Assembly (NCBI GenBank): GCA_023052935.1
Contig: CM041294.1
Span: 19,678,635-19,742,634, forward strand
Length of the DNA: 64,000 nucleotides
Direction: 5' to 3'
Origin: Piezodorus guildinii
Taxonomy: Eukaryota > Arthropoda > Insecta > Hemiptera > Pentatomidae
Positions 6,742 to 63,985 of this stretch are shown piece after piece. Position 1 is the first letter of the stretch, and each line of letters starts with the position of its first letter. The notes beneath the pieces are model-generated. The model was given only the letters and a program-made list of their open reading frames with translations, was not told the origin of the DNA and searched no databases. A program made the position numbers and the translations under genes.

Positions 6742-7029
6742 TGATTAAGAAAATAATAATAATAAATAAATAATGAGATAAGAATTAAAGATAAAAGAAA
6801 GATAATTAAAAGAAAAGCAAGCCCGAGCTTGCCGAGCTAGCGGCAATCAGCTGATCAGTGACCCTTCTTTCACTTTTTCGTGATTGTACAAAGTAAATTA
6901 TAACTTTGCTTACCGAAACTTCTCCAATATTCACTGCCGTAATATTCCTGAGGTCTAGTGATGTTCTCCAGACTGAATTCTAGCGAATTCCTACTGAAAA
7001 AAGCAAAAATCTGAGAGGAAAAACACTCT

Positions 7030-10674: not shown

Positions 10675-11574
10675 TTGGGTTGATGCAAAATTAATGCAGG
10701 TCATCCTCTATTGCAATATCTTAATTCCAATTGTGTAAACAAAGCTAATCCTAACATTGATCATTATTATACCAAAACAAACCTTATCTAATACCCTCTC
10801 TTTCACCATGAATTTGTTTAGTAAAATCGTTTTGTTCAGTGTGTTCAAAGGTCTTGAATCGAAAATGTCAAAGTGCGATTTTCGTCAAATTTATTTTTAC
10901 GAATTTAAATTAGGGCGCAGCGCTGCGCAAACGGCTCGTAATATTAATGAAGTGTGGGGTCAGGGGGCTATTAATGAGTGCACGGTGCAGCGTTGGTTCC
11001 AGAAGTTTCGCAGAGGAGATTTCGACCTCGAAGACAAGGAAGGTCGGGGCCGTCATCTTGCTCTGGACAACGACCAGCTGAGGTCAAAAGTGGAAGAAGA
11101 CCCAACCAAAACCACACGAGAAATGGCGGCGGAACTCGAAACTCAAAAATTGCAACGTCTTTGCCCAGCATTGATGAATCGGAAGGGGCCGATCCTGCTC
11201 CACGATAACGCCAGACCACACGTTGCACAACCAACGCTTCGACGACTGCACGAGTTGGGCTACGAAGTTCTCCAACATCCGCCTTATTCACCTGACCTCT
11301 CTCCTACAGACTTCCACTTTTTCAGGCATCTGGACAACTTTTTGAGGGAGAAAAATTTTCAAAACCAGGACGACATTGAAAATTCTTTTCGTGATTTCAT
11401 TGAGTCCAGGGATTCGGATTTTTTTTCTAATGGAATAAGAAAGCTTGTTGAACGTTGGCAAAAGTGCATTGATTCAGATGGAAATTATTTTGATTAAATA
11501 TATATGGTTAAAGTAAAGATATGGCGTATTTACAATACCTACTAAAAACCTGCATTAATTTTGCATCAACCCAA
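10675..11574 (+). mobile_element. Mariner element, internally deleted, copy 1
   Basis: This 900-bp element has perfect 27-bp terminal inverted repeats (starting TTGGGTTGATGCAAAATT) and a TA duplication at 10673-10674 and 11575-11576. A full mariner is about 1.3 kb; roughly 0.4 kb of transposase is missing from the middle. It sits inside a family H right-end fragment (about 10610-10674 and 11577-11627). Confidence 0.92.
10865..11497 (+). CDS. Deleted mariner transposase (DNA-binding domain joined to C-terminal half)
   Basis: A 210-residue open frame starting MSKCDFR; a full-length DD34D mariner transposase has about 345. Residues 1 to about 93 keep the N-terminal helix-turn-helix pair (QTARNIN and TVQRWFQKFRRGD segments). 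The frame then jumps, in phase, from MAAEL to KLQRLCPAL. The deletion removes the block with the first catalytic Asp, which normally lies in a TCDEKW-type motif. The second (LLHDNARPH) and third (YSPDLSPTDFHFF) catalytic boxes remain. It cannot be a working transposase but could still bind the terminal repeats. An upstream in-frame ATG at 10757 would add 36 residues; MSKCDFR is the family's usual start. Confidence 0.85.
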   Translation: MSKCDFRQIYFYEFKLGRSAAQTARNINEVWGQGAINECTVQRWFQKFRRGDFDLEDKEGRGRHLALDNDQLRSKVEEDPTKTTREMAAELETQKLQRLCPALMNRKGPILLHDNARPHVAQPTLRRLHELGYEVLQHPPYSPDLSPTDFHFFRHLDNFLREKNFQNQDDIENSFRDFIESRDSDFFSNGIRKLVERWQKCIDSDGNYFD

Positions 11575-16353: not shown

Positions 16354-17252
16354 TTGGGTTGATGCAAAATTAATGCAGGTTTCCTCTATTGCAATATCTT
16401 AATTCCAATTGTGTAAACAAAGCTAATCCTAAAATTGATCATTATTATACCAAAACAAACCTTATCTAATACCCTCTCTTTCACCATGAATTTGTTTAGT
16501 AAAATCGTTTTGTTCAGTGTGTTCAAAGGTCTTGAATCGAAAATGTCAAAGTGCGATTTTCGTCAAATTTATTTTTACGAATTTAAATTAGGGCGCAGCG
16601 CTACGCAAACGGCTCGTAATATTAATGAAGTGTGGGGTCAGGGGGCTATTAATGAGTGCACGGTGCAGCGTTGGTTCCAGAAGTTTCGCAGAGGAGATTT
16701 CGACCTCGAAGACAAGGAAGGTCGGGGCCGTCATCTTGCTCTGGACAACGACCAGCTGAGGTCAAAAGTGGAAGAAGACCCAACCAAAACCACACGAGAA
16801 ATGGCGGCGGAACTCGGAACTCAAAAATTGCAACGCCTTTGCCCAGCATTGATGAATCGGAAGGGGCCGATCCTGCTCCACGATAACGCCAGACCACACG
16901 TTGCACAACCAACGCTTCGACGACTGCACGAGTTGGGCTACGAAGTTCTCCAACATCCGCCTTATTCACCTGACCTCTCTCCTACAGACTTCCACTTTTT
17001 CAGGCATCTTGACAACTTTTTGAGGGAGAAAAATTTTCAAAACCAGGACGACATTGAAAATTCTTTTCGTGATTTCATTGAGTCCAGGGATTCGGATTTT
17101 TTTTCTGGTGGAATAAGAAAGCTTGTTGAACGTTGGCAAAAGTGCATTGATTCAGATGGAAATTATTTTGATTAAATATATATGGTTAAAGTAAAGATAT
17201 GGCGTATTTACAATACCTGCTAAAAACCTGCATTAATTTTGCATCAACCCAA
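16354..17252 (+). mobile_element. Mariner element, internally deleted, copy 2
   Basis: An 899-bp sister of copy 1 (10675-11574) with about ten differences by eye. It has the same terminal repeats, the same internal deletion joint, and TA duplications at 16352-16353 and 17253-17254. The shared deletion shows that the deleted form itself has transposed. Confidence 0.92.
16543..17175 (+). CDS. Deleted mariner transposase, copy 2
   Basis: A 210-residue open frame like that of copy 1, with three differences seen: Ala to Thr in the first helix region, Glu to Gly at the deletion joint, and Asn to Gly near the C-terminus. The joint has the same phase and the first catalytic Asp is again missing. A frame staying open in two separately inserted copies may reflect youth rather than selection. 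Confidence 0.85.
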   Translation: MSKCDFRQIYFYEFKLGRSATQTARNINEVWGQGAINECTVQRWFQKFRRGDFDLEDKEGRGRHLALDNDQLRSKVEEDPTKTTREMAAELGTQKLQRLCPALMNRKGPILLHDNARPHVAQPTLRRLHELGYEVLQHPPYSPDLSPTDFHFFRHLDNFLREKNFQNQDDIENSFRDFIESRDSDFFSGGIRKLVERWQKCIDSDGNYFD

Positions 17253-28050: not shown

Positions 28051-28846
28051 CCCGTATAAAAATCATTAGTTCCAAAAACACTCGGAGGTTTTAGAAATAA
28101 TAAATCCTAATAAGAAAGCATTTGAGTCACTCCGCTTTTTCTTCTTTATCAGGGTAATATATTCTGAGTAATAATCGAACTCGGGAATCGGACGAAAAAT
28201 GGTCCTCATTAGAAACTTAGCCCAAAGCCTATTAATTACCTGGTCATGGACGAACCAATGAAAGGGAAACCAGGAATGACCGTGGTTATAAATGGATGCA
28301 GCGGCTGGGACATCTCGGGTCCAATTAACTTTTTTAATTGGGAGAGGGTGGGAGCAATTAGTGAGTTGGTTTTTGGCTAGGAGCGGTCCTTAATAACTGG
28401 AGCAGATTTACATAAGAGAGCGCTCCCTGCAATCGATACCAGATCGAAAGATAATTAAAGAGCTCACTTCGCCCAGAATTAATTTATCCTGTAATACGAG
28501 ACCTCCACTCCACTCGCTTCCAACCACTCACTATTGTCTTAGAGAGTTCTCCCTCCTACGGACCTATCTCGAGTCTCAGATTTCCCTGATTCGAAAAACT
28601 CCAACTGATACAGATTACAGTTACTTTATTTTTATAATGGATTATGGATTAATGACTTGTTGCGATGATGATAAAAAGTTGGCTGTAGGTACAAATGAAG
28701 AAATTGTATGTGTGTGCAATCAAATAAATATTTTAATTATGATGAAGTTTTTGTTGACCGTTGAGAAATTAGATGATGAAGATGGTAGGGGGTACGGTCA
28801 TAAAATAGAAACACACATTTAAAACAAGTGCTATTTTAATTATTTG
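28051..28846. other. Unassigned stretch, partly GC-richer
   Basis: 28150-28620 is less AT-rich than its neighbours but lacks a recognisable frame. The 61-codon frame at 28637-28822 (+) has a few acidic stretches and no known motif. It could be an exon, but I see no supporting splice pattern. Confidence 0.35.
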
Positions 28847-28886
28847 CTTACGTTTCGGCCTACATTGTGGGCCTTCATCAGGGCTA
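28847..28886 (-). ncRNA. Hammerhead-ribozyme-like motif
   Basis: The minus strand reads CTGATGA, then a hairpin (AGGCC...GGCC pairing across an ACAATGTA loop), then GAAAC. These are the two conserved core boxes of a hammerhead with stem II between them. The core spans 28852-28881. The same layout marks the Penelope-like ends at 42-53 kb, but no Penelope coding sequence adjoins this one. Confidence 0.5.
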
Positions 28887-30183
28887 AAAGAAACAAGATA
28901 ACAACCAATGTAATTATATACTTAATAATGCGTTAGGTATATAATAATAATATGACAGTAGTATAATATGGGAACATAAATAAAATTAAATGTAAAATGA
29001 TAATAAGATGACAGTTATAAAGTATGGAAATAAACAAAATTAAGATGATAGTTGTACAGTCTGGAAGTAAACAGAATTGAGATGATAATATTGCAATAAG
29101 AATATATAAAGAGAGACTAAGAAAATGAAAAAATGACAAAGGAAAAATATGTGAACAATTACAATTTTAAATATGAACAATTTTGAAGGATATATGACGG
29201 TAATATATTAAAAACATAGTTAAGAGTATAGGTAATATATAAAAAGAACATAGTCGTTAAAAAGAGAAACAGAATCAATAAAAAAAATAAGAAGTGATGT
29301 TTTTCTGTTTGAAAACCGTTCATTGCGGGGAACGGAAAATATGGAAACTAGAATGTTCGTTAGAGCTTTTCCAAGAAGCTGTATTATGTTTACTGATTCG
29401 ATTGTTTGTTGAAGAAAAAAAAAAAAAACTAAAGGATTGGCCAATGATTTTTTAATACATATTAATAATATAAAATAGCAGACTAAGATTAAAAAATGCA
29501 GAATTAGTGAAAAAAAGAGAAAAATAGGAAGCGAAAAATATATAGGTATGACTATAAAGGGGAAGATGTAAGTGATAGTGACGAGGTAAAGATTAAAAGA
29601 TATTAGGTAATAACGAATGACGATGATTAATGACGATTAGATAATAACGAATGACGATAAGCATTTTAATTTAATGAATCTAAAAATTATATAAAGCGAA
29701 AACATTTAAAGAAATTAATAATACAGTATAAAGAGGTATTATTTATAGTAAGTAATGAAAGAAAAAGTACAATGTTCATAGGTGCGAGAAATTATAATAA
29801 TAATTAGAAGAAAATCTGAATAACAGCCAGAAGCACTCGGCAATCAGCTGTGTCTCAGCCACCAAATGTATTTCACTTATACTCATTATATACATGTGTA
29901 ATCTGCATTAGTTTCATAATATTTACTTAGTCCCTTATGAGACATTTCCGTTTAAACATCGCGAAAAATGAATTTTGCCACTTTTTGAAATTCTCTTACA
30001 AAAAAGGATTAGATAACATAGATGAATGAATGAAAAATAATTTGTATGCTGCGATATTTCGTTCCCTAAAAATACAATAAACAGAGGAAGTCTAATTTAT
30101 ATTTTATAGATTCTTCCTTATAATTATTTAGTCAAGTAAATTATATATGGCTAATATGAATAAAAGATACAAAAACAAAACAA
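28887..30183. other. 1.3 kb very AT-rich stretch downstream of the hammerhead-like motif
   Basis: Degenerate repeats of GATGACAGTTATAAAG-like and GATTAGATAATAACG-like words occur (about 28950-29120 and 29600-29660). No coding frame was recognised. Confidence 0.4.
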
Positions 30184-32404: not shown

Positions 32405-32715
32405 TCTAAAAATTAATACCTGCTATCGAGAAAGCCCCTGATGAGCCAATCAATTTTTAATTCAATTTTGTTATTTATTGCAAAAACTAAATTAACAGGT
32501 CAAGAATGTTAAAAATTACATAAAGGAAGGCACTGCCCGAGATTTTTTTCTCAACTGCATAAGGAAAAGTCAAATTATAAAGAAGCCCATTTATTTTTTA
32601 CCTCAGTTATAAATTTATACTTTTTATTAATCTGATTAACTTTTACTGAGCCAGACCCTATGAAAATGCCATAATTTAAGCCAAATAATATATACTTAAT
32701 ATAGAAAAAATATAT
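32401..32715. other. Unassigned AT-rich stretch
   Basis: Nothing recognised. Confidence 0.4.
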
Positions 32716-32912
32716 ATTATAGGTGGAATAATCAGGAGTCAGTCATTATTTGAATTTTTTAAATATTTTTTTAATTTTCTGTCGTCTCAGTTTATGCTTG
32801 GATATGGCTCAGTAATGCCCGATGATGGCTCACAAGCTTGTGCCGAAACGTAGGAAAAATTAAAAAAAAGACTGACTCCTGATTTTTTCATCTATAATAG
32901 TTTCTACAGTCA
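32716..32912 (+). repeat. Small foldback element with Penelope-type end and hammerhead-like motif
   Basis: The arms at 32716-32765 and 32853-32903 are inverted copies (GGAATAATCAGGAGTCAGTC against GACTGACTCCTGATT). Between them lies TCAGTTTATGCTTGG with GGCTCAGTAATG, shared with the Penelope-like 3' region at 49110-49140. Then comes CCGATGATGGCTCACAAGCTTG with GAAAC at 32845-32849. The core box reads CCGATGA instead of CTGATGA, so self-cleavage is doubtful. It ends with ATAATAGTTTCTACAGTC, like the large Penelope insertion. No protein is encoded. Confidence 0.7.
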
Positions 32913-33795
32913 ACAAGAAAAAAATATATACTTTTTGATTTATATTATATTTTGAAAATCCTGTAATATTAATAACTGTTTGATCCTCGAAACAGACTCC
33001 GGGATAATAAATTGAATAGCCATTGGCTTACACCGGCAGAGGACAGAGGTGAGATTCCCTGGGGGCAGATTAGGCTGTCCATAACATAGGTTAGGGGAAG
33101 CGTGTGGGTGTCTTGTGATATCTGCTGGCTAGCAGCCAGCCTCTGGTTATTGCTTTATCACGATATCTGCTCTGGTCACTCTTCTACAGTTTGCTCCTCG
33201 TACAGACGGATTTATTTATAAATGTAATTTATGATTACCTTTCCGCTACCAAATCATTATTAACGTAGCCAGAAATATTCTCTCTAATCCCTCTTAATGC
33301 AATGGAGGAGATTTTGGGAAGACCTGGGTGTCGACATAGGCGATATAGCGGTGTTAGCAGAAAATGTGATTTTGGACTCCCTGGGGATTAACCACCATCA
33401 CCTGTATGGCAATTAAATGGTGAATGTGATTATATTTTGCTTATGTAATGTGCGCACCAAAGGTATAATTTACAATATAGTGCTAGAGAGAAATAAAATA
33501 AAAGTAATGCAAAGGGCTAAAAGAGAAAAAAAAAATTGTAAATATAAATTTGTATTAGAATAAGGGAAAAAAAAATGAAAATGTATGTAAAATAGGTCCA
33601 AGTGATTGATAAGTATGATGTGTTATTTAAGCAACCCGATGTATTTGGGCCGCATTGCCAAACAAATAAAGCATTTCTCTCTGGTTGTCTCATGAATGTT
33701 TTGCCACATTGTAAGAACTGATACCTAGTATTATATTGTTATTACACCTAGTAGTATGCTGCACCATTTAAGGTCTAACATTTGTCTTATTAACT
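32913..33795. other. Unassigned stretch, GC-richer at 33000-33430
   Basis: 33300-33415 reads in one frame as WRRFWEDLGVDIGDIAVL and on to a stop near 33417, and AATAAAGCATTT lies at 33664. This could be the 3' end of an unidentified retroelement; I cannot place it. Confidence 0.35.
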
Positions 33796-40670: not shown

Positions 40671-41016
40671 TAAGAATATAGACACTCGTCGCTGGGCTCA
40701 AAAGATACCGGCAGGAACTCAAAGCTGGAACAAGAACAAGATCTAGATACTAAAGTAAAGCTGGTTGTTATCACGTAGTCATCAATTCCATGTATAAAGA
40801 AAAATAATAAATTGCATTAAACACACAAAATAAAAAGTTATTTCATCTAGTACCTATCATTAGTAAATCGGTATAGAAAAGTAATCTTTCCGACAAGGAT
40901 TTTTAAATGTTATAATAAAAACAGGTGTAAGGTAAGATTGCAATTGATATATTTAAAATAGTAGGTTTCTAATATCTTCCAAAAAAAGCTTTTACAGAAA
41001 AATTTAACAAGTCAAC

Positions 41017-41042
41017 GTTTCGGGTGCCTTCCCCATCATCAG
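41017..41042 (-). ncRNA. Hammerhead-ribozyme-like motif, left arm
   Basis: Minus strand: CTGATGA, a stem II with GGG paired to CCC, then GAAAC. Both core boxes are intact. Confidence 0.5.
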
Positions 41043-41263
41043 GACTCACTGAGTTCTCTGACAAGTTAAAAATCCATTTTTATAATTTAAAAATGTTGTC
41101 AAAAAGTCTTTAAAATAAAATTATATTGCACAGAGAACAACAATCATCCCACCTCACATATTATTTGGCCTCTTATCTAGGCCTATAATATGATGACTAT
41201 AACTTTATGACATTTTTAAATTATAAAAATGGATTTTTAACTTGTCAGAGAACTCAGTGAGTC

Positions 41264-41289
41264 CTGATGATGGGGAAGGCCCCCGAAAC
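41264..41289 (+). ncRNA. Hammerhead-ribozyme-like motif, right arm
   Basis: Plus strand: CTGATGA at 41264-41270 and GAAAC at 41285-41289, with a GGG/CCC stem between. Confidence 0.5.
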
Positions 41290-41335
41290 GTTAACTCGTT
41301 AAAGTTTTTCTGTAAAAGCTTTTTTTTGGAAGATT

Positions 41336-42362
41336 TTAGTTATATGTTATATAAATGTTATGAATAACCGTATTGGAAAAAAAATGAGGGTTTAAATGAA
41401 TATATATTTTGAATTATGCCAACATGTTTTAATTAACGATAGATTTTTTTAAAAAAATTTATTAACAGAGTGTAATTATAACTAAGGGACTTGAAAGAGA
41501 CCTAGCAGAGCGTATGGCCAAGTTTACTGCATAATTACTTATTAAACTACCCTTAGCATTTCCCATCTTCTTGGCATTAGTCATTTCAGTCTGGAATAAC
41601 TTGAGGGATAGTTAAGGGCGAGGATATAGGGCATATTGAGCTGCTTCATATGTAAATTCCAATTTACATATGTTTGCAGATGGCATTCGTTTACCAATTG
41701 AAAAGATTCTTCGGGTGTAATCCCCCCTTCCGGGAGGATGAATGATTTATCAGCGAGAAAAGTTTGCTAATGGTATGCTAATTAACAGTAACAGAAGGTG
41801 GGGGATGAGATTTAACACAATCTTAAAGTAGACCCGGCTAATTAATTACAGTTATTTAAGGAGGGGAGCCTGGTCGGTTGGATAAGACTTCAGGGCCGGA
41901 ATTCGACTGAAGTTACGTTTCCATCTAGTAGGACTGAATTATCTTGAATTCATTTCTTTTGGCCTAATACAGTGTTGATCAAACTAAATTTATACACATT
42001 TATATGATTTAAATTTAAAAAATATATTATATATTAACATTGTTATATATTTAAATTATATATTTAACTATTTAATTATGTTAATTACATAATTATGTTT
42101 AACAGGTTTTCACCTTAGCGCTCTAATTGGTTATCGATGCCATCGATGTGTTCGACATAGAACGCTGGTATCTCTTGAGTCTTGTTGTCTCTCAAAATGT
42201 GGAGGACAAGATTGGTTCAGGGTCTCCTTGCTTGATTTTAAATATTGCTATCATATGCTTGTAATAAATAAATAAATGTATATAAGGTGTTTTTATGTTG
42301 TTTTCCCTGAAAATAGTCGCTGGCAAATCGGATCAAGCCACTTTGATTCAGACGATTCAAAC
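41336..42362. other. 1 kb unassigned stretch, moderately AT-rich
   Basis: 41480-41950 is less AT-rich than its surroundings and non-repetitive here; no frame with a recognisable domain. It could be unique host sequence. Confidence 0.4.
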
Positions 42363-42374
42363 TTAAATTACATG
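42363..42374 (+). repeat. Left target duplication of the Penelope complex
   Basis: TTAAATTACATG, identical to 52875-52886, in direct orientation. Confidence 0.85.
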
Positions 42375-42463
42375 TATTGAGGGTGTATAGTCGACTGTAG
42401 AAACTATTATAGGTGGAATAGTCAGGAATCAGTCATTTTTAAAAAGTTTTTAATTTTGCCAAC

Positions 42464-42494
42464 GTTTCGGCTCAAGCTTGTGAGCCATCATCAG
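42464..42494 (-). ncRNA. Hammerhead-ribozyme-like motif at the 3' end of copy A
   Basis: Minus strand: CTGATGA, stem II (GGCTC paired with GAGCC around ACAAGCTT), then GAAAC. Hammerhead ribozymes in the terminal repeats of Penelope-like elements are established knowledge. The other strands (stems I and III) were not resolved by eye. Confidence 0.6.
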
Positions 42495-43119
42495 GGCTAC
42501 AAACATCAGAACAAAAGAGATACATATTAATATGATAATGAAAATTTTCTTCTGAATGTAGTGACAATGATAACATTTGAAATAAAACAGAAAATATACC
42601 AACATACTTACATATTATAGATACAAATAATGATAATATGATACATAATCTGATGATGATAAGCATAACAAATTTTACAGAACTTTAGACTTTAATATAA
42701 AAGTAAAAAAACATATATATATAAACGTACCATTACTGAGCCATGTCCAAGCATAAACTGAGGAAAACCATAAACATAGGTAGTATGGGGAGGGGTTCGT
42801 GTAAAAACCCTGAAGGTTTTCCCCTCTAAGTGTAAATACTACAGCTTATCTTTGTTTTTAAAAAGTTTTACAAAATTATATAATGGAAAAAACAAAATAA
42901 TATATCCGTATGTACAATAAGGTTGAACATTTTTAACAGAAAATTATAAACACTAGAATCTGAGGTATTTAAAAGATCATGAGGTATATAATAAAAAACA
43001 AAATAAAATAAATAAATAACAAAAACAAGAACCAGAGGTGTTGTAAACAAAAAGATAAATATACAGTAAATAAATAAAATATACATTACACAAGCAATTT
43101 GTACAATAAAGTGATAGAG

Positions 43120-45689
43120 TTATAATTTAAGGAGACGGAAGATGTTAGCATACGAGGGAGAAATTATCTCTTTGTCAGTTTTATGATTTACGGGAACTCG
43201 ATCTTTTTCCATATGGATATATATAGCTTCGGAGAGGAGTCGCTTTTTGTAGTTAGGTACGGTGGCTAGGATTTCAGGATTATCAAAATCAAAATGATGG
43301 TCAAGGGATATAGCGTGCTCGGATAATTTTGAGGAAAATGGGTTACGGGTAGATATTGTGTATTTGTGCTGATAAATTCTTTTTTTGAGATAGTTTTTGG
43401 TCTCGCCTATGTAACATGAATTACAATTTGGGGAAGAGCAGGGAATACGATAAACTAAATTTGATTTTTGTAGGAAAGGGATGGGATCTTTTAATTTTGA
43501 ATATAGATTCTTTAATTTGTTACTATGTTTTAAAACTAAGCGGAGATGGGGAAAGCTAGAGGATAAGACTTTTTTAATTTTTTGAGATAGAGATGGGATG
43601 TATGGAATGGATCTGTACTGGGGAACTATGGCGGTTTGTGGAGAGTGTGCGGGGATGGAGTGAGGGTTTGAAGAAGTTTTAATGAGGTTCTTGATTAATT
43701 GGTCAGGAAAATTATTAGATTTTTGTTAGTCGGGTTAAATTATCTTGGTGAAATTTTGTATCGGAAAGTGTTAAGGAACGGTGTATGAGGTTTTTGGCTA
43801 CACTGATTTTCTGGTGATGTGGGTGTAAGGAAAAATAATTAAGGAGACGGCCAGAATAAGTAGGTTTGGTGTACCAGTTAGTGGATAGTGAATTATCGGA
43901 ATTTCTTATGATAAGGAGGTCGAGGAACGGAAGTGAGTTATTGTTTTCTGTTTCAATGGTAAATTGGAGTCGAGGATGGTATGAGTTGAAAGAAGTCAAG
44001 ATATTAGGGATGGCTTTGGGGTTGAGGATCAGGAAAAGGTCATCAACATATTTTTTAATGAAAAAAATATCTGCGGAAAAGTTAGGTATAACGGTGTCAA
44101 GAAGGTGATTGAGGACGATGTTGGAGAGATCAGGAGCAAGACAGTTTCCCATGGCTAAACCCGAAATTTGTTTATAAAATTTCTCTTGGAAACATAGGTA
44201 GCCAGAGTTACAGCACAGAGAGAGGGATTCAAGGTATGAGGATTGGTTGAGGGAGGTATGTGGTTCTAAGGTCAGCCAATTTTCATCGATTATTTTAAGA
44301 GCACGGTCAGTAGGGATGTTGGTAAAAAGGTTTACAGCATCTAGGGAGGCTAAAATGAAATTTTGAGGAATAGTTAGGGATTTCAGTTCTTCAAGGAGTT
44401 GCTGTGAATTTTGGATGTCATATGGGTTATTTTGGCTGAGTTTTTGTAAGGGAGAAAGAAGGAATGAACTGAGTTTTGAGGATGGTGAGTTGATATTTGA
44501 AATTATGGGACGTAATGGGTTTCCTGGTTTATGGATTTTAGGTAAGCCGTAACATCGGGGAGCAACTGAATTATAGGAGATGAGGTTTTTGTAGGTAGAG
44601 AGAGTGATCTGTTTGGATTCGTGGAGATATTTTAAATGCTGGTTAAATTTAGTGGTGAGAGAGGATGTAGGATCGCGTTTGGTAGGAAGGTATGTGGTTT
44701 TGTCAGAAAGAAGGAAATTTAGTTTTTCATCGTATTCTGCCCGGTCCATGATAACGGTTTTGTTTCCTTTATCTGCACGGGTGACTATTATATGGTTATT
44801 GGTTTTGAGAAAGGATCGGGTAGAGGATAGGTCCTTAGTAAATTGAGGTGAAAATGGAGAAGGGTTAGACGGAGGGTTTTGTAAGTAATTGGTAATAATA
44901 TTAGAGGTTCGGGTACGGGAAATCATTCGTTTTTCATCGTCAGGAATCAAAAGAGTGTCCTGATGGATGAATTCAAGGTCGGTTATAAGAGATGGTATTA
45001 GTTTTTTTGAATTTGGTAAAAGGGATATTGAAATTTGGACCTAAGCTGAGAATATTATTGACATGTTGAGGGAGTTTAACGGAGGAGATGTTGTGAACCC
45101 AATCAGGATCCCCGGAAGGATATATCTTATTCGCGTTAAAGTTTTCTTTAAGTTGTTTAAATTTATTTGCTAATATACTTTTTTTCTTTGATTTATGAGA
45201 TATATAGATATTATTAATGCAAGAGTTTAGTGAGGAAATATCGTCAGTAGAGAGAATGGAATAAAAGGAGTTAAATAAATAATTAATTTTCTTTTTTACT
45301 GCTTGAATGAGGAAAATCGTTTCTTTGATATGTAGGTTAAGGAGTGATTTTTTAAAACGGAATTGGATGCTTTCAAGTTTTGAGAGAAATTTTTTGTTAA
45401 CATTAAAGTTGTTAAAATTGTTGGAAATGAAGGGGGGGAATAAAGAATGAGAGCGGCATTTTAGAAGGAATATGAGCGACTCCTCTTTGTTGGCTAATTG
45501 TTTATAAAGATGGGAAATACGGTTAAGAAGAGGTTTTTTATCAGGATATTTTGATTTTAGAATTACAAAAGAGTTTACCTCAGTTCTAATGTTATTTTCT
45601 GATGTCGCTGTGATTGTTGCTGGAGATGAAGTAACAGTAAGTGATGAATCGGCGTCCGGTGTTGTGAAGGTGACACTGGTGATGAACAT
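43120..45689 (-). pseudogene. Penelope-like RT-endonuclease, copy A (two frameshifts)
   Basis: The N-terminal part is open at 44973-45689 and the RT part at 43715-44950; the endonuclease lies at 43120-43715. RT motifs: PRCYGLPKIHKPGNPLRPI, GLAMGNCLAPDLSNIVLNHL and catalytic YVDD. The C-terminal GIY-YIG-type region reads NLVYRIPCSS then CYIGETKNYLKKRIYQHK. An extra base near 45020 shifts the frame. A loss of 8 bp (CTAAAATC, between short AAAATC repeats) near 43731 puts a stop between RT and endonuclease. The GIY-YIG domain is the endonuclease of Penelope-type elements and would cut the target. Confidence 0.88.
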
Positions 45690-45875
45690 GTAGTGGTAGG
45701 TTTATAAGATGAAGAGTACATATCTCAGATGTGATGGTTTCTGAAGTTTGCGATGATGAAGTTGAGGTCCCAAGTAGAGTGAATTATATTGAGGGTGTAT
45801 AGTCGACTGTAGAAACTATTATAGGTAGAATAGTCAGGAATCAGTCATTTTTAAAAAGTTTTTAATTTTGCCAAC

Positions 45876-45906
45876 GTTTCGGCTCAAGCTTGTGAGCCAT
45901 CATCAG
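45876..45906 (-). ncRNA. Hammerhead-ribozyme-like motif between copies A and B
   Basis: Identical core to 42464-42494. It lies upstream of copy A's coding region and at the 3' end of copy B, as expected for a shared terminal repeat in a tandem. Confidence 0.6.
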
Positions 45907-46534
45907 GGCTACAAACATCAGAACAAAAGAGATACATATTAATATGATAATGAAAATTTTCTTCTGAATGTAGTGACAATGATAACATTTGAAATAAAAC
46001 AGAAAATATACCAACATACTTAAATATTATAGATACAAATAATGATAATATGATACATAATCTGATGATGATAAGCATAACAAATTTTACAGAACTTTAG
46101 ACTTTAATATAAAAGTAAAAAAAACAAAAAAAAAAAAACATATATATTATAAACGTACCATTACTGAGCCATGTCCAAGCATAAACTGAGGAAAACCATA
46201 AACATAGGTAGTATGGGAGGGGTTCGTGTAAAAACCTGAAGGTTTTCCCCTCTAAGTGTAAATACTACAGCTTATCTTTGTTTTTTAAAGTTTTACAAAA
46301 TTATATAATGGAAAAAACAAAATAATATTCCGTATGTACATAAGGTTGAACATTTTACAGAAAATTATAAACACTAATCTGAGGTATTAAAAGATCATGA
46401 GGTATATAATAAAAAACAAAATAAAATAAATAAATAACAAAAACAAGAACCAGAGGTTTGTAACAAAAAGATAAATATACAGTAAATAATAAAATATACA
46501 TTACACAAGCAATTTGTACAATAAAGTGATAGAG

Positions 46535-47484
46535 TTATAATTTAAGGAGACGGAAGATGTTGCATACGAGGAGAAATTATCTCTTTGTCAGTTTTATGAT
46601 TTACGGGAACTCGATCTTTTTCCATATGGATATATAAGCTTCGGAGAGGAGTCGCTTTTGTAGTTAGTACGGTGGCTAGGATTTTAGGATTATCAAAATC
46701 AAAATGATGGTCAAGGGATATAGCGTGTTCGGATAATTTTGAGGAAATGGGTTACGGGTAGATATTGTGTATTTGTGCTGATAATTCTTTTTTTGAGATA
46801 GTTTTTGTCTCGCCTATGTAACATGAATTACAATTTGGGAAGAGCAGGGAATACGATAAACTAAATTTGATTTTGTAGGAAAGGGATGGATCTTTTAGTT
46901 TGAATATAGATTCTTTAATTTGTTACTATGTTTTAAAACTAAGCGGAGATGGGGAAAGCTAGAGGATAAGACTTTTTTAATTCTTTGAGATAGAGATGGG
47001 ATGTATGGAATGGATCTGTACTGGGAAACTATGGCGGTTTGTGGAGAGTGTGCGGGGATGGAGTGAGGGTTTGAAGAAGTTTTAATGAGGTTCTTGATTA
47101 ATTGGTCAGGAAAATTATTAGATTTTAGGATTTTTGTTAGTCGGTTAAATTATCTTGTGAAATTTTGTATCGGAAAGTGTTAAGGAAACGGTGTATGAGG
47201 TTTTTGGCTACACTGATTTTTGGTGATGTGGGTGTAAGGAAAAAATAATTAAGGAGACGACCAGAATAAGTAGGTTTGGTGTACCAGTTAGTGGATAGTG
47301 AATTATCGGAATTTCTTATGATAAGGAGGTCGAGGAACGGAAGTGAGTTATTGTTTTCTGTTTCAATGGTAAATTGGAGTCGAGGATGGTATGAGTTGAA
47401 AGAAGTCAAGATATTAGGGATGGCTTTGGGGTTGAGGATCAGGAAAAGGTCATCAACATATTTTTTAATGAAAAAAATATCTGC
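46535..47484 (-). pseudogene. Penelope-like copy B (partial, many small deletions)
   Basis: Endonuclease and RT C-terminal region up to the bases just before YVDD, where the orientation flips at 47484/47485. It is interrupted by many 1-2 base losses (for example around 46340-46390, 46640-46670 and 46800-46880). It keeps the 8-bp segment that A and C lack. Only 47137-47409 stays open. Confidence 0.82.
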
Positions 47485-48748
47485 CTAACTATTCCTCAAA
47501 ATTTCATTTTAGCCTCCCTAGATGCTGTAAACCTTTTTACCAACATCCCTACTGACCGTGCTCTTAAAATAATCGATGAAAATTGGCTGACCTTAGAACC
47601 ACATACCTCCCTCAACCAATCCTCATACCTTGAATCCCTCTCTCTGTGCTGTAACTCTGGCTACCTATGTTTCAAGAGAAATTTTATAAACAAATTTCGG
47701 GTTTAGCCATGGGAAACTGTCTTGCTCCTGATCTCTCCAACATCGTCCTCAATCACCTTCTTGACACGTTATACCTAACTTTTCCGCAGATATTTTTTTC
47801 ATTAAAAAATATGTTGATGACCTTTTCCTGATCCTCAACCCCAAAGCCATCCCTAATATCTTGACTTCTTTCAACTCATACCATCCTCGACTCCAATTTA
47901 CCATTGAAACAGAAAACAATAACTCACTTCCGTTCCTCGACTCCTTATCATAAGAAATTCCGATAATTCACTATCCACTAACTGGTACACCAAACCTACT
48001 TATTCTGGTCCCTCCCCTTAATTATTTTTCCTTACACCCACATCACCAGAAAATCAGTGTAGCCAAAAACCTCATACACCGTTCCTTAACACTTTCCGAT
48101 ACAAAATTTCACCAAGATAATTTAACCCGACTAACAAAAATCCTAAAATCTAATAATTTTCCTGACCAATTAATCAAGAACCTCATTAAAACTTCTTCAA
48201 ACCCTCACTCCATCCCCGCACACTCTCCACAAACCGCCATAGTTCCCCAATACAGATCCATTCCATACATCCCATCTCTATCTCAAAAAATTAAAAAAGT
48301 CTTATCCTCTAGCTTTCCCCATCTCCGCTTAGTTTTAAAACATAGTAACAAATTAAAGAATCTATATTCAAAACTAAAAGATCCCATCCCTTTCCTACAA
48401 AAATCAAATTTAGTTTATCGTATTCCCTGCTCTTCCCCAAATTGTAATTCATGTTACATAGGCGAGACCAAAAACTATCTCAAAAAAAGAATTTATCAGC
48501 ACAAATACACAATATCTACCCGTAACCCATTTTCCTCAAAATTATCCGAGCACGCTATATCCCTTGACCATCATTTTGATTTTGATAATCCTGAAATCCT
48601 AGCCACCGTACCTAACTACAAAAAGCGACTCCTCTCCGAAGCTATATATATCCATATGGAAAAAGATCGAGTTCCCGTAAATCATAAAACTGACAAAGAG
48701 ATAATTTCTCCCTCGTATGCTAACATCTTCCGTCTCCTTAAATTATAA
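47485..48748 (+). pseudogene. Penelope-like copy B' (partial, forward)
   Basis: Starts within the RT (IPQNFILASLDAVNLFTN region) and runs through YVDD to the endonuclease stop at 48748. Single-base losses fall only before about 48010; from there to 49470 it is essentially identical to copy C. The RT-endonuclease joint is intact (LTKILKSNNF), unlike A and C. Confidence 0.82.
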
Positions 48749-49375
48749 CTCTATCACTTTATTGTACAAATTGCTTGTGTAATGTATATTTTATTTATTT
48801 ACTGTATATTTATCTTTTTGTTTACAACACCTCTGGTTCTTGTTTTTGTTATTTATTTATTTTATTTTGTTTTTTATATATATACCTCATGATCTTTTAA
48901 ATACCTCAGATTCTAGTGTTTATAATTTTCTGTTAAAAATGTTCAACCTTATTGTACATACGGATATATTATTTTGTTTTTTCCATTATATAATTTTGTA
49001 AAACTTTTTAAAAACAAAGATAAGCTGTAGTATTTACACTTAGAGGGGAAAACCTTCAGGGTTTTTACACGAACCCCTCCCCATACTACCTATGTTTATG
49101 GTTTTCCTCAGTTTATGCTTGGACATGGCTCAGTAATGGTACGTTTATATATATATGTTTTTTTTACTTTTATATTAAAGTCTAAAGTTCTGTAAAATTT
49201 GTTATGCTTATCATCATCAGATTATGTATCATATTATCATTATTTGTATCTATAATATGTAAGTATGTTGGTATATTTTCTGTTTTATTTCAAATGTTAT
49301 CATTGTCACTACATTCAGAAGAAAATTTTCATTATCATATTAATATGTATCTCTTTTGTTCTGATGTTTGTAGCC

Positions 49376-49406
49376 CTGATGATGGCTCACAAGCTTGAGC
49401 CGAAAC
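49376..49406 (+). ncRNA. Hammerhead-ribozyme-like motif between copies B' and C
   Basis: CTGATGA at 49376-49382, stem II GGCTC/GAGCC, GAAAC at 49402-49406. It precedes copy C's coding region by about 150 bp. Confidence 0.6.
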
Positions 49407-49560
49407 GTTGGCAAAATTAAAAACTTTTTAAAAATGACTGATTCCTGACTATTCCACCTATAATAGTTTCTACAGTCGACTATACACCCTCAATATAATT
49501 CACTCTACTTGGGACCTCAACTTCATCATCGCAAACTTCAGAAACCATCACATCTAAGAT

Positions 49561-52161
49561 ATGTACTCTTCATCTTATAAACCTACCACTACATGTTCAT
49601 CACCAGTGTCACCTTCACAACATACGGACGCCGATTCATCAGTTACTGTTACTTCATCTCCAGCAACAATAACAGCGACATCAGAAAATAACATTAGAAC
49701 TGAGGTAAACTCTTTTGTAATTCTAAAATCAAAATATCCTGATAAAAAACCTCTTCTTAACCGTATTTCCCATCTTTATAAACAATTAGCCAACAAAGAG
49801 GAGTCGCTCATATTCCTTCTAAAATGCCGCTCTCATTCTTTATTCCCCCCTTCATTTCCAACAATTTCAACAACTTTAATGTTAACAAAAAATTTCTCTC
49901 AAAACTTGAAAGCATCCAATTCCGTCTTAAAAAATCACTCCTTAACCTACATATCAAAGAAACGATTTTCCTCATTCAAGCAGTAAAAAAGAAAATTAAT
50001 TATTTATTTAACTCCTTTTATTCCATTCTCTCTACTGACGATATTTCCTCACTAAACTCTTGCATTAATAATATCTATATTTCTCATAAATCAAAGAAAA
50101 AAAGTATATTAGCAAATAAATTTAAACAACTTAAAGAAAACTTTAACGCGAATAAGATATATCCTTCCGGGGATCCTGATTGGGTTCACAACATCTCCTC
50201 CGTTAAACTCCCTCAACATGTCAATAATATTCTCAGCTTAGGTCCAAACTTCAATATCCCTTTTACAAATTCAAAAAAACTAATACCATCTCTTATAACC
50301 GACCTTGAGTTCATCCATCAGGACACTCTTTTGATTCCTGACGATGAAAAACGAATGATTTCCCGTACCCGAACCTCTAATATTATTACCAATTACTTAC
50401 AAAACCCTCCGTCTAACCCTTCTCCATTTTCACCTCAATTTACTAAGGACCTATCCTCTACCCGATCCTTTCTCAAAACCAATAACCATATAATAGTCAC
50501 CCGTGCAGATAAAGGAAACAAAACCGTTATCATGGACCGGGCAGAATACGATGAAAAACTAAATTTCCTTCTTTCTGACAAAACCACATACCTTCCTACC
50601 AAACGCGATCCTACATCCTCTCTCACCACTAAATTTAACCAGCATTTAAAATATCTCCACGAATCCAAACAGATCACTCTCTCTACCTACAAAAACCTCA
50701 TCTCCTATAATTCAGTTGCTCCCCGATGTTACGGCTTACCTAAAATCCATAAACCAGGAAACCCATTACGTCCCATAATTTCAAATATCAACTCACCATC
50801 CTCAAAACTCAGTTCATTCCTTCTTTCTCCCTTACAAAAACTCAGCCAAAATAACCCATATGACATCCAAAATTCACAGCAACTCCTTGAAGAACTGAAA
50901 TCCCTAACTATTCCTCAAAATTTCATTTTAGCCTCCCTAGATGCTGTAAACCTTTTTACCAACATCCCTACTGACCGTGCTCTTAAAATAATCGATGAAA
51001 ATTGGCTGACCTTAGAACCACATACCTCCCTCAACCAATCCTCATACCTTGAATCCCTCTCTCTGTGCTGTAACTCTGGCTACCTATGCTTCCAAGAGAA
51101 ATTTTATAAACAAATTTCGGGTTTAGCCATGGGAAACTGTCTTGCTCCTGATCTCTCCAACATCGTCCTCAATCACCTTCTTGACACCGTTATACCTAAC
51201 TTTTCCGCAGATATTTTTTTCATTAAAAAATATGTTGATGACCTTTTCCTGATCCTCAACCCCAAAGCCATCCCTAATATCTTGACTTCTTTCAACTCAT
51301 ACCATCCTCGACTCCAATTTACCATTGAAACAGAAAACAATAACTCACTTCCGTTCCTCGACCTCCTTATCATAAGAAATTCCGATAATTCACTATCCAC
51401 TAACTGGTACACCAAACCTACTTATTCTGGCCGTCTCCTTAATTATTTTTCCTTACACCCACATCACCAGAAAATCAGTGTAGCCAAAAACCTCATACAC
51501 CGTTCCTTAACACTTTCCGATACAAAATTTCACCAAGATAATTTAACCCGACTAACAAAAATCTAATAATTTTCCTGACCAATTAATCAAGAACCTCATT
51601 AAAACTTCTTCAAACCCTCACTCCATCCCCGCACACTCTCCACAAACCGCCATAGTTCCCCAGTACAGATCCATTCCATACATCCCATCTCTATCTCAAA
51701 AAATTAAAAAAGTCTTATCCTCTAGCTTTCCCCATCTCCGCTTAGTTTTAAAACATAGTAACAAATTAAAGAATCTATATTCAAAATTAAAAGATCCCAT
51801 CCCTTTCCTACAAAAATCAAATTTAGTTTATCGTATTCCCTGCTCTTCCCCAAATTGTAATTCATGTTACATAGGCGAGACCAAAAACTATCTCAAAAAA
51901 AGAATTTATCAGCACAAATACACAATATCTACCCGTAACCCATTTTCCTCAAAATTATCCGAGCACGCTATATCCCTTGACCATCATTTTGATTTTGATA
52001 ATCCTGAAATCCTAGCCACCGTACCTAACTACAAAAAGCGACTCCTCTCCGAAGCTATATATATCCATATGGAAAAAGATCGAGTTCCCGTAAATCATAA
52101 AACTGACAAAGAGATAATTTCTCCCTCGTATGCTAACATCTTCCGTCTCCTTAAATTATAA
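49561..52161 (+). pseudogene. Penelope-like RT-endonuclease, copy C (near-intact)
   Basis: The longest Penelope reading frame here. Frame 1 is open from ATG 49561 to about 49850, where a C-run is one base shorter than in copy A and shifts the frame. The second frame is open to 51566 and holds the whole RT (YVDD at 51231-51242). The third part (about 51570-52161) holds the GIY-YIG-type endonuclease (CYIGET at about 51864-51881) and ends FRLLKL. The same 8-bp loss as in copy A stops the frame at 51566. Total coding potential is about 860 residues, the normal size for a Penelope ORF. Confidence 0.9.
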
Positions 52162-52786
52162 CTCTATCACTTTATTGTACAAATTGCTTGTGTAATGTAT
52201 ATTTTATTTATTTACTGTATATTTATCTTTTTGTTTACAACACCTCTGGTTCTTGTTTTTGTTATTTATTTATTTTATTTTGTTTTTTATTATATACCTC
52301 ATGATCTTTTAAATACCTCAGATTCTAGTGTTTATAATTTTCTGTTAAAAATGTTCAACCTTATTGTACATACGGATATATTATTTTGTTTTTTCCATTA
52401 TATAATTTTGTAAAACTTTTTAAAAACAAAGATAAGCTGTAGTATTTACACTTAGAGGGGAAAACCTTCAGGGTTTTTACACGAACCCCTCCCCATACTA
52501 CCTATGTTTATGGTTTTCCTCAGTTTATGCTTGGACATGGCTCAGTAATGGTACGTTTATATATATATGTTTTTTTACTTTTATATTAAAGTCTAAAGTT
52601 CTGTAAAATTTGTTATGCTTATCATCATCAGATTATGTATCATATTATCATTATTTGTATCTATAATATGTAAGTATGTTGGTATATTTTCTGTTTTATT
52701 TCAAATGTTATCATTGTCACTACATTCAGAAGAAAATTTTCATTATCATATTAATATGTATCTCTTTTGTTCTGATGTTTGTAGCC

Positions 52787-52817
52787 CTGATGATGGCTCA
52801 CAAGCTTGAGCCGAAAC
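52787..52817 (+). ncRNA. Hammerhead-ribozyme-like motif at the 3' end of copy C
   Basis: Same core and stem II as the three other copies, about 57 bp inside the right boundary of the insertion. Confidence 0.6.
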
Positions 52818-52874
52818 GTTGGCAAAATTAAAAACTTTTTAAAAATGACTGATTCCTGACTATTCCACCTATAA

Positions 52875-52886
52875 TTAAATTACATG
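52875..52886 (+). repeat. Right target duplication of the Penelope complex
   Basis: TTAAATTACATG, a direct copy of 42363-42374. The unrelated flanks outside it argue against a simple assembly palindrome. Confidence 0.85.
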
Positions 52887-62672: not shown

Positions 62673-62755
62673 ATCACTTGATAACTTCTAAATTCGCGTA
62701 ACTTATACAGTGACGATTTTAGAAATTAGCACTATTCCCGCGATACGGTCAGAAG

Positions 62756-63985
62756 ATGGTCGACCCGCAAATTGATGAAGAGAAGAAGCAGCTGGAATAC
62801 AGGCTGGCGCAGGCATCGGTCGAGCGATCAAAACTGGAGGCCCAACTCACCAAGGCAAATGAGACGACGCAGCTGGAACTTGCTAAAATACGAACTCAGA
62901 ACTCCGCGTTCATTCACGAAGTAATTAGCCAGCTAGAACCCTTCGGCGGAGTTATAGGTGATCTAGAACATTTTATTAAGGGCGGGGACCAGATCAAGAG
63001 TTTGATACTAGCACGCCAAGAAAGCGGCGTGTTATCAGAACCAGACGCAAAACTTCTGGAAGCTTCGCTAGTAGGCCGAATTTCTAGGAGGGTGCTAAAT
63101 ACGATCCAGGGCGACTTGTCCCAAACCTGGGATACGTTGAAAATAAGGCTGAAGAAGCTGTACGGTGGGGGTAGATGGACCCCCGAAGAGGATGTATTTT
63201 ACCTTCTGAAGGAGCGGAGGACCCCAGACCAATCTGAGGGCGAATTCGCCGAAAAACTTCTGGTGCTATACAATAGACTGGGAGAAAAGATGGTGGAGAC
63301 CTTCGGGCCAGCGGAGGGGGCCCAAAAGATGGAATTCGTAAGGGGCATATTGAAGGTCCAATTGAACCACTATACTGACAGGCCTGGTTCTCTCCCTAGG
63401 GACAGGGATTTCGTCGAATGTGCCCACGACCTCGTCGACGCTCGGGAACGCAACGAGGCACGATTCGAGAGACCGGAGGCAGAATGGACGGAGGTGAGGT
63501 CACCCAGGAGAAGGCTACGGAGCCCACCCAGGCGTAATACGAGTGGCAGAGGACCCGACAGAAGAGGGCCAAACGACAGAAGGCAGATGAGAGGCACAGA
63601 TGATAGGAGACGGCGCGGCGAAAAGCGGTGTTACGAATGTAACAAAACGGGCCACGTGGCAGCTCAATGTAACCTCACGCGATGCTACGAGTGCGGAAGA
63701 CGAGGCCACGTAGCGAGAGAGTGTCCGAGGCGCAATCCCCGTTCGAGTAGGAGAGAGCAGCAGCCGGAACCAATGGAGGTTAATCTTCAGGACTGGAGCA
63801 GCAGAAGAGCCGGAGGGAGGAGGAGCAGCGGCCGATATGCCAGCGAAGAGTCATCAGGAGAGGAGAGTGTCTCATCTGAGCGCAGCAGTTCGGCTACGAG
63901 GCGAAATGAGGTGAGTAGAGGGGTTCCCTGGAGGGGAGGCCCATCCGGGGCGGAAGTCGCGGCGCGGCGTCCGCATTCAGATTGA
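62756..63985 (+). CDS. Ty3/gypsy Gag polyprotein
   Basis: A 409-residue retrotransposon capsid/nucleocapsid precursor. Residues about 6-50 look like a coiled coil; 55-230 have the composition of a retrotransposon capsid (WDTLKIRLKKLYGG; EGEFAEKLLVLYNRLGEKM). An Arg-rich stretch (250-290) precedes two CCHC knuckles, C292-C305 and C310-C323 (both CX2CX4HX4C). A Ser/Arg-rich tail follows. The start ATG lies 83 bp after the primer site with no earlier in-frame ATG. The frame is intact and markedly GC-richer than the AT-rich surroundings. pol should follow beyond the window; only 15 bases remain after the stop, so the gag-pol joint cannot be seen. Confidence 0.88.
   Translation: MVDPQIDEEKKQLEYRLAQASVERSKLEAQLTKANETTQLELAKIRTQNSAFIHEVISQLEPFGGVIGDLEHFIKGGDQIKSLILARQESGVLSEPDAKLLEASLVGRISRRVLNTIQGDLSQTWDTLKIRLKKLYGGGRWTPEEDVFYLLKERRTPDQSEGEFAEKLLVLYNRLGEKMVETFGPAEGAQKMEFVRGILKVQLNHYTDRPGSLPRDRDFVECAHDLVDARERNEARFERPEAEWTEVRSPRRRLRSPPRRNTSGRGPDRRGPNDRRQMRGTDDRRRRGEKRCYECNKTGHVAAQCNLTRCYECGRRGHVARECPRRNPRSSRREQQPEPMEVNLQDWSSRRAGGRRSSGRYASEESSGEESVSSERSSSATRRNEVSRGVPWRGGPSGAEVAARRPHSD

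What the first reader, a model, noticed from the sequence alone, without database searches (positions are those of the whole stretch)
42375..52874. A 10.5 kb Penelope complex built as a giant inverted repeat but inserted as one unit
Seen: reverse A + reverse B face forward B' + forward C with a ~300-bp loop, inside a single direct duplication TTAAATTACATG. Known: Penelope elements often form tandems and may carry inverted end pieces. Inferred: a tandem was copied back on itself (snap-back or template switch during target-primed synthesis) before or during insertion. Palindromes of two Penelope units per arm with a target duplication are, to my knowledge, not a standard form.
Basis: partly seen in the sequence, partly recalled or inferred. 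Interest (0 to 1): 0.87.

Follow-up and report, generated by a model that had tools for sequence, protein, structure and literature searches.

The report
Giant head-to-head Penelope retrotransposon insertion
A 10.5 kb jumping-gene insertion made of two mirror-image arms turns out to be an oversized version of a known Penelope layout, and its two unequal ends suggest that the element copied itself into both strands of a cut at once.

Summary
Two Penelope arms, each a 5'-truncated copy followed by a full copy, stand head to head at 42375-52874 inside one 12-bp duplication, TTAAATTACATG. Head-to-head ends inside a TSD are a described form: A. vaga Penelope has an inverted pLTR, a TSD and an optional ~31-bp 'tail' at one end (PMC3846280). 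What is unusual against what I read is arm length.

This insertion has that signature: the left outer end carries a 32-nt tail that the right lacks. A 202-bp Penelope insertion at 32.7 kb repeats the plan, with a perfect 12-bp TSD. Simple snap-back fails: the right arm alone holds the ~300-nt loop, so it would be the template, yet the left 'copy' has a tail the template lacks.

I favour two-sided target-primed reverse transcription: both target strands prime on tandem RNA, one at each of the two start sites seen in vitro for a lizard Penelope (PMC11167929), and the cDNAs are then end-joined. Caveats: no reads; the genome search did not complete; sequence near the centre looks like low-quality consensus; a 9-bp hairpin lies 4 nt from the joint.

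The parts
42363..42374 (.). left target site duplication TTAAATTACATG
42375..42406 (-). 32-nt 'tail' at the outer 3' end of the left arm; absent at the right outer end
   Evidence: tail concept from PMC3846280 and PMC11167929
42375..45786 (-). unit A: full-length copy of the left arm, with the 8-bp deletion shared with C
43715..45040 (-). RT ORF of A (441 aa, YVDD motif)
   Evidence: (RVT_1 E 3.5e-7)
43120..43725 (-). GIY-YIG endonuclease ORF of A (201 aa), in another frame from the RT ORF because of the 8-bp deletion
   Evidence: no Pfam match at E<=1e-3; the copy in C, which has the same letters, was scanned at a looser cut-off
42462..42494 (-). hammerhead-like core of A
   Evidence: 7 matches in the window, none in 100 shuffles
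45787..47484 (-). unit B: 5'-truncated copy of the left arm; indel-rich, probably low-quality consensus at 46138-47260
45874..45906 (-). hammerhead-like core of B
47458..47480 (.). hairpin with 9-bp arms and 5-nt loop inside B, 4 nt from the centre joint
   Evidence: chance not tested
47484..47485 (.). head-to-head joint, 1 nt microhomology (C), no target DNA
47485..49495 (+). unit B': 5'-truncated copy of the right arm, starting about 300 nt further upstream than B
47954..48748 (+). ORF of B' joining RT C-terminus and GIY-YIG endonuclease (264 aa), without the 8-bp deletion
   Evidence: (GIY-YIG E 0.0012, 19.5 bits, under the curated 22.6)
49376..49408 (+). hammerhead-like core of B'
49464..49495 (+). 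the tail sequence inside the tandem, between B' and C
49496..52874 (+). unit C: full-length copy of the right arm, ending at the no-tail position ...CACCTATAA
49782..51566 (+). RT ORF of C (594 aa, YVDD)
   Evidence: no Pfam match
51556..52161 (+). GIY-YIG endonuclease ORF of C (201 aa)
   Evidence: E 0.0023, 18.6 bits, under the curated 22.6
52787..52819 (+). hammerhead-like core of C
52875..52886 (.). right target site duplication TTAAATTACATG
32705..32930 (.). comparison locus: 202-bp head-to-head Penelope insertion (32717-32918) with 12-bp TSD AAAAAATATATA at 32705-32716 and 32919-32930; left end without tail, right end 21 nt longer, of which 17 nt align with the tail

Best explanation
The complex is one insertion of an endonuclease-bearing Penelope-like element in its known head-to-head form, with unusually long arms. 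Proposed steps: (1) the element protein cuts both strands of an AT-rich target, leaving 12-nt 3' overhangs (inferred from the 12-bp TSD); (2) each target 3' end primes its own reverse transcription on a tandem, at least dimeric Penelope RNA, the left starting at the with-tail site and the right 32 nt upstream at the no-tail site; (3) each cDNA runs through a full unit into the unit upstream and stops at a different place; (4) the two free cDNA ends are joined head to head with 1 nt of microhomology; (5) filling in the overhangs makes the TSD. Shown here: the structure, TSD, unequal ends, shared tandem order and joint. Inferred: the steps. Two-strand cutting and extension and two adjacent start sites are shown in vitro for an Anolis Penelope by PMC11167929, not here.
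For: Single perfect 12-bp TSD; the two 1-kb flanks share no BLAST hit (E<=1e-3) and no 14-mer in either orientation. Outer ends at two positions 32 nt apart, with and without tail; A. vaga Pen2a has a 31-bp tail, and the Anolis tail equals the interval between two in-vitro RT start sites. The no-tail end falls at the same nucleotide (...CACCTATAA, within 1-2 nt of ambiguity) in a diverged insertion at 32.7 kb, which also has one longer, tail-like end and a 12-bp TSD, so the 32-nt difference is unlikely to be random trimming. Snap-back geometry fails. A and C share an 8-bp deletion that B and B' lack, so both arms carry the same tandem order. Joint with 1 nt microhomology; no palindrome spans it beyond 4-bp arms (245 of 300 random places do as well).
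Against: No reads and no genome search, so the joint is not proven physically. A two-ended joined product is not reported in the parts of PMC11167929 that I read. Copying two RNAs of one source does not predict that 12 of 13 A/C differences sit in the first 816 columns (P 3.6e-7; the boundary was chosen after seeing them). Only one locus in the window discriminates against snap-back. A 9-bp-arm hairpin lies 4 nt inside B; A. vaga authors read palindromes at such junctions as signs of self-priming. The no-tail end is ambiguous by 1 nt at the TSD.
Confidence: 0.56

Rival explanations
1. Snap-back or self-priming: one strand of the tandem (cDNA, or antisense RNA as proposed for A. vaga) folds back near its 5' end and is copied, giving a hairpin that is opened and inserted.
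For: Head-to-head orientation and a ~300-nt loop are what self-priming on an antisense strand gives; Arkhipova et al. 2013 favour it for A. vaga, from palindromes at inverted junctions. A hairpin with 9-bp arms lies 4 nt inside B (47458-47480). The 32.7-kb copy is compatible with it, its plus arm being the longer at both ends.
Against: The loop lies only in the right arm, so the right arm would be the template, yet the left arm has 32 nt at its outer end that the right lacks. At the joint itself there is 1 nt of possible pairing, and no palindrome spans it beyond 4-bp arms. Priming at the 9-bp hairpin would not by itself give the ~300-nt offset. Rescue needs a loss at the right end that leaves the TSD perfect and stops at the same nucleotide as the 32.7-kb copy.
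Confidence: 0.15
2. Assembly inflation: the true locus is an ordinary Penelope insertion (short inverted arm plus partial tandem), and the assembler lengthened the left arm with sequence of the right arm or of other copies.
For: B is littered with indels (43 of 45 events lie at 46138-47260; 16 of 20 single-base deletions adjoin the same base against a background of 0.526, P 0.011). A/C differences cluster next to that zone. Outer arms are nearly identical. A. vaga copies with long tandem/inverted structures, all but one, could not at first be assembled whole.
Against: Both outer joints carry the TSD and the two expected kinds of end; the inner ends are unequal; flanks are not mirrored. Low accuracy beside an inverted-duplication joint is also what nanopore reads of a real one show (PMC7229812, passages). 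The platform here is unknown.
Confidence: 0.17
3. Growth after insertion: a canonical copy with a short inverted pLTR inserted first; later break-induced replication or gene conversion copied the right arm into the left.
For: A and C are nearly identical over the outer ~2.6 kb but not in the first 816 columns of the unit, as a conversion tract would give.
Against: Needs two events and a new non-homologous centre joint; the left arm ends in a different place from the right; one event explains the TSD and ends.
Confidence: 0.08
4. Two separate Penelope insertions in opposite orientation, the second at the edge of the first.
For: Penelope does insert into Penelope (A. vaga Pen2a in Pen3).
Against: TTAAATTACATG stands only at the outer edges; the centre shows 1 nt of shared sequence and no target DNA; both arms have the same beta-alpha order.
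Confidence: 0.03

Closest known systems
Penelope Pen2a_Av of Adineta vaga (PMC3846280, text on Figure 2a)
   Same: Two direct pLTRs with an ORF between, an inverted pLTR at the 5' side, a 9-bp TSD around the whole, and an optional 31-bp tail on one of the inverted pLTRs
   Different: The inverted part there is 181 bp; here it is 5.1 kb, a full unit plus a truncated one; TSD 12 bp
Poseidon PAc of Anolis carolinensis (PMC11167929)
   Same: Tandem copies, hammerhead motif, RT then GIY-YIG, AT-rich target, and a tail lying between two start sites
   Different: PAc is shown in vitro with short templates; this is a genomic product of another host, with no activity tested
Pen3_Av / Pen4_Av of A. vaga (PMC3846280)
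   Different: Two Pen3 copies there are permuted, overlapping parts in inverted orientation on detached contigs; here the whole structure has both flanks and a TSD
Twin-primed (inverted) LINE-1 insertions (recalled, no paper read)
   Same: Both target strands prime cDNA synthesis and the cDNAs are joined head to head
   Different: In twin priming the second primer anneals inside the RNA and the arms carry different parts of one RNA; here both arms start at the element's 3' end and overlap by about 5 kb

Membership tests
Endonuclease-bearing Penelope-like element | Penelope-type reverse transcriptase | tested here: met
   RVT_1 E 3.5e-7 for the A ORF, but no Pfam match for the longer C ORF; 298 homologues at E<=1e-3 among 7989 candidates scored, best 5.5e-107 at 37% identity; YVDD in A and C aligned with four homologues
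Endonuclease-bearing Penelope-like element | C-terminal GIY-YIG endonuclease | tested here: met
   PF01541 E 0.0012 (B') and 0.0023 (C), 19.5 and 18.6 bits, both under the curated 22.6 and not listed at E<=1e-3 for A or C; the motif block aligns with three of four homologues, P0001 being cut short there
Endonuclease-bearing Penelope-like element | Partial tandem: 5'-truncated copy upstream of a full copy, giving pLTRs | tested here: met
   B-A and B'-C in the two arms
Endonuclease-bearing Penelope-like element | Minimal hammerhead ribozyme motif in the pLTR | tested here: met
   Core motif in all four pLTRs of the complex; 7 matches in the window against 0 in 100 shuffles. No Rfam match; the lone fold of the B' motif prefers another structure, the other four show a stem II. 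Cleavage not tested
Endonuclease-bearing Penelope-like element | Inverted pLTR and optional 30-40 bp tail at one end inside a TSD | tested here: met
   32-nt tail at the left end only, 12-bp TSD
Endonuclease-bearing Penelope-like element | Able to transpose now | not testable with these tools
   A and C have split ORFs, B and B' are 5'-truncated; source copy could not be searched
Snap-back / self-primed hairpin insertion | The copy arm contains nothing that the loop-bearing arm lacks | tested here: not met
   Loop in the right arm, tail only in the left arm
Snap-back / self-primed hairpin insertion | Palindrome at the inverted junction | tested here: inconclusive
   None spanning the joint beyond 4-bp arms; a hairpin with 9-bp arms ends 4 nt away inside B
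Twin-primed LINE-1-type inversion | Arms carry different, hardly overlapping parts of one RNA | tested here: not met
   Arms overlap over 5110 aligned columns and both start at the 3' end
Long-read fold-back artefact | Flanking DNA mirrored beyond the arms | tested here: not met
   1-kb left and right flanks share no BLAST hit and no 14-mer, direct or inverted
Long-read fold-back artefact | No clean read crosses the centre | not testable with these tools
   no reads held

The most novel reading that the evidence does not exclude
Head-to-head Penelope structures in general are products of two-sided target-primed reverse transcription, one cDNA from each target strand and often one from each of the two start sites, then end-joined; this locus is a genomic example whose tail and loop lie on opposite arms, which simple self-priming cannot give.
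Probability: 0.45. Interest if true: 0.72.

Novelty: new variant of a known kind. Interest (0 to 1): 0.5.

Why it matters
How Penelope elements complete an insertion is open: the 2013 A. vaga paper hypothesises self-priming, and the 2024 in-vitro paper leaves the later steps 'yet to be validated experimentally'. A copy with tail and loop on opposite arms separates the two ideas and gives a rule that can be scored on every head-to-head copy in any genome. Head-to-head placement of two units might also give double-stranded RNA if read through (inference).

Tried and rejected
Rejected: snap-back as the simple cause (tail and loop on opposite arms); two nested insertions (no second TSD); twin priming of the LINE-1 kind (arms overlap fully); TIR transposon (the ORFs are RT and GIY-YIG). 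Rfam found no hammerhead in the region; the motif was found by pattern. Lone folds of five motifs gave z-scores of -2.48, -0.57, -1.12, -1.39 and -0.29; the lowest, that of B', comes from a fold that is not the hammerhead, while the other four show a stem II, so folding gives little support; the support is the conserved core over varying stems. A joined-flank 'empty site' matched only its own two halves and one weak 67% stretch at 34.2-34.4 kb. Searches for relatives with DNA attached gave nothing: genome contigs by protein (46 pattern matches, 0 relatives), viral contigs and genome contigs by hammerhead pattern (0 each). Host not identified: the best hit of the neighbouring 894-aa RT ORF is an unnamed protein (82%); named hits are a record called Pantoea sp. 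Taur (77%; probably insect DNA in a bacterial assembly, my inference), Ranatra chinensis (54 and 57%) and Uroleucon formosanum (47-48%) among the 120 listed, so perhaps a hemipteran. Literature on two-sided priming of Penelope: in the listings of searches I saw no paper proposing it; 'Penelope-like elements' with 'twin priming' gave 0 papers; two Penelope papers that I asked for are not held, others were not looked up.

Full report
WHAT IS THERE. The 12-mer TTAAATTACATG occurs twice on the + strand of the window and nowhere on the minus strand, at 42363-42374 and 52875-52886. Between them lie two arms in inverted orientation. The left arm reads on the minus strand as A (42375-45786, a whole ~3.41 kb unit) preceded by B (45787-47484, truncated at its 5' side). 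The right arm reads on the plus strand as B' (47485-49495, truncated) followed by C (49496-52874, whole). The arms align over 5110 columns at 98.6%; the outer ungapped 2618 bp pair has 5 mismatches, 4 of them in its inner 52 bp. The flanks, 1 kb each, share no BLAST hit and no 14-mer. Two random 12-mers of this window are identical with probability 1.1e-5.

WHAT THE ELEMENT IS. The units encode a Penelope-type reverse transcriptase (RVT_1 E 3.5e-7 for A, though the C ORF gives no Pfam match; 298 homologues among 7989 candidates scored, best 5.5e-107 at 37% identity, an annotated Coccinella septempunctata protein) and a GIY-YIG endonuclease (E 0.0012 in B', 0.0023 in C, both below the curated score) in the order RT then EN, as the four aligned homologues have it as far as they reach (P0001 is cut short before the GIY-YIG block). 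Each of the four pLTRs carries a hammerhead-like core, CTGATGATGG...CCGAAACGT; the window has 7 such matches and 100 dinucleotide shuffles have none. Rfam does not report it, and the isolated B' motif prefers another fold, but a review states that all available PLE sequences carry hammerhead motifs, usually minimal ones lacking helix III (PMC6155905, passages). In an alignment of five motifs from the window (one for the four copies here, one at 32.8 kb, one at 28.9 kb, two at 41 kb) 19 columns are invariant, covering the core except one base changed in the 32.8-kb copy, while the stems differ. No copy here is whole: A and C share an 8-bp deletion that separates the RT frame from the EN frame; B and B' lack the deletion but are 5'-truncated. 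The insertion looks young: between A and C, after the first 816 columns, one column differs.

THE ENDS ARE THE KEY. The left outer end reads (in element sense) ...CACCTATAA TAGTTTCTACAGTCGACTATACACCCTCAATA | target. The right outer end reads ...CACCTATAA | target. The left arm thus has a 32-nt tail (31 if the ambiguous T is counted to the right arm) that the right lacks. In A. [quoted passage not shown] The present locus has one outer end of each kind.

A SECOND CASE IN THE SAME WINDOW. At 32717-32918 lies a 202-bp Penelope derivative whose pieces are 81-97% identical to the pLTR. Its left end, on the minus strand, stops at the same ...CACCTATAA position as C, within 2 nt. Its right end, on the plus strand, runs 21 nt further, of which 17 align with the tail. 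It is flanked by AAAAAATATATA at 32705-32716 and 32919-32930. That 12-mer is AT-rich and so weaker evidence than TTAAATTACATG, but on the + strand of the window it occurs only at these two places (once more on the minus strand). A third pair of inverted pLTR-like ends with hammerhead cores lies at about 40915-41339 (arms 40947-41125 and 41184-41356); its TSD candidates are one 12-mer with one mismatch where the arms seem to diverge (40903-40914 and 41340-41351) and others of equal score, one a perfect 10-mer, so it is only suggestive. A lone remnant lies at 28.8 kb. The head-to-head plan thus recurs in these elements; the arm length at 42.4-52.9 kb is what is unusual.

WHY NOT SNAP-BACK. If one strand had folded back and been copied, the arm holding the loop is the template and the other arm cannot contain anything the template lacks. 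B' starts about 300 nt further upstream than B (301 in the window; 303 in unit coordinates), so the right arm holds the loop and must be the template. Yet the left arm ends with 32 nt that the right lacks. Taking the left arm as template fails for the same reason at the inner end. The same argument holds for the antisense-RNA self-priming model of the 2013 paper. Later loss at the right end would have to leave the TSD perfect and stop at the nucleotide where the 32.7-kb copy stops. The joint has 1 nt of shared sequence, and the longest palindrome spanning it has 4-bp arms, which 245 of 300 random places match or exceed. Against my reading, a hairpin with 9-bp arms (47458-47480) ends 4 nt from the joint inside B. 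It belongs to the unit sequence, and I did not test its chance; it may have stopped the reverse transcriptase, or it may hint at self-priming. The 32.7-kb copy is compatible with both models.

PROPOSED MECHANISM. Cutting the two strands 12 nt apart with 3' overhangs leaves each target end with the future TSD as its 3' end. The top strand primes at the with-tail site and becomes the left arm; the bottom strand primes at the no-tail site and becomes the right arm. Both copy RNA with unit beta (without the deletion) upstream of unit alpha (with it): A and C are alpha, B and B' are beta. The cDNAs stop at different points in beta and are joined. The structure is shown; the order of steps is inference supported by the in-vitro work on a relative.

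RESULTS THAT DO NOT FIT WELL. Of 13 differing columns between A and C, 12 are in the first 816 of 3410 (P 3.6e-7, boundary chosen after seeing them). Two transcripts of one source do not predict that; a template switch, a conversion tract or uneven polishing would. B has 24 deletion, 16 substitution and 5 insertion events against the majority of the other copies (one insertion is the 8 bp shared with B'; several substitutions look to me like alignment shifts beside indels); 43 of the 45 lie at 46138-47260. Of 20 single-base deletions 16 adjoin the same base, against a background of 0.526 (P 0.011). B' has a few small differences of the same kind up to ~48.0 kb. This looks like long-read consensus error around the centre. 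Nanopore reads lose accuracy beside true inverted duplications (PMC7229812, passages), so the zone is compatible with a real palindrome, but the platform is unknown and an assembly that lengthened the left arm would leave the same trace. I give that 0.17.

VERDICT. Observation confirmed; 'one unit' supported; 'not a standard form' wrong in kind and right in size; snap-back disfavoured. Interest 0.5: a known architecture, but a specimen that separates two published ideas of Penelope replication. In the listings of my searches I saw no paper that proposes two-sided priming as the origin of the head-to-head form; I read only the papers named here, and two others that I asked for are not held.

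Noticed in passing
32705-32930: Miniature head-to-head Penelope insertion with perfect 12-bp TSD, one end without and one with a tail-like extension; its hammerhead core has one changed base (CCGATGA for CTGATGA).
   Followed up: yes
40915-41339: Another inverted pair of Penelope-like ends of a different family, hammerhead cores at 41015-41042 (-) and 41264-41291 (+); TSD only suggestive.
   Followed up: partly
28808-28889: Lone Penelope pLTR remnant with a hammerhead core on the minus strand (28850-28881) and a differing stem II.
   Followed up: partly
45003-47270 and 47.6-48.05 kb: Stretch around the palindrome centre with clustered differences and homopolymer deletions, probably low-quality consensus; cause not settled.
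   Followed up: partly
47458-47480: Hairpin with 9-bp arms in the RT coding sequence of B, ending 4 nt from the centre joint; a possible stop or priming site.
   Followed up: no
2740-6744: Apparently intact non-LTR retrotransposon on the minus strand: 439-aa ORF with CCHC-like knuckles (recalled motif) followed by an 894-aa endonuclease/RT ORF, 82% identical to an unnamed protein.
   Followed up: partly
2740-5424: A 77% identical RT is filed under 'Pantoea sp. Taur', probably insect DNA in a bacterial assembly.
   Followed up: no
10739-11497 and 16417-17175: Two nearly identical 252-aa mariner-like ORFs (family recalled from motifs) about 5.7 kb apart, in direct orientation; possibly a recent duplication or an internally deleted non-autonomous pair.
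   Followed up: no
62723-63985: 420-aa ORF with two CCHC-like knuckles, gag-like (recalled motif), close to the window end.
   Followed up: no
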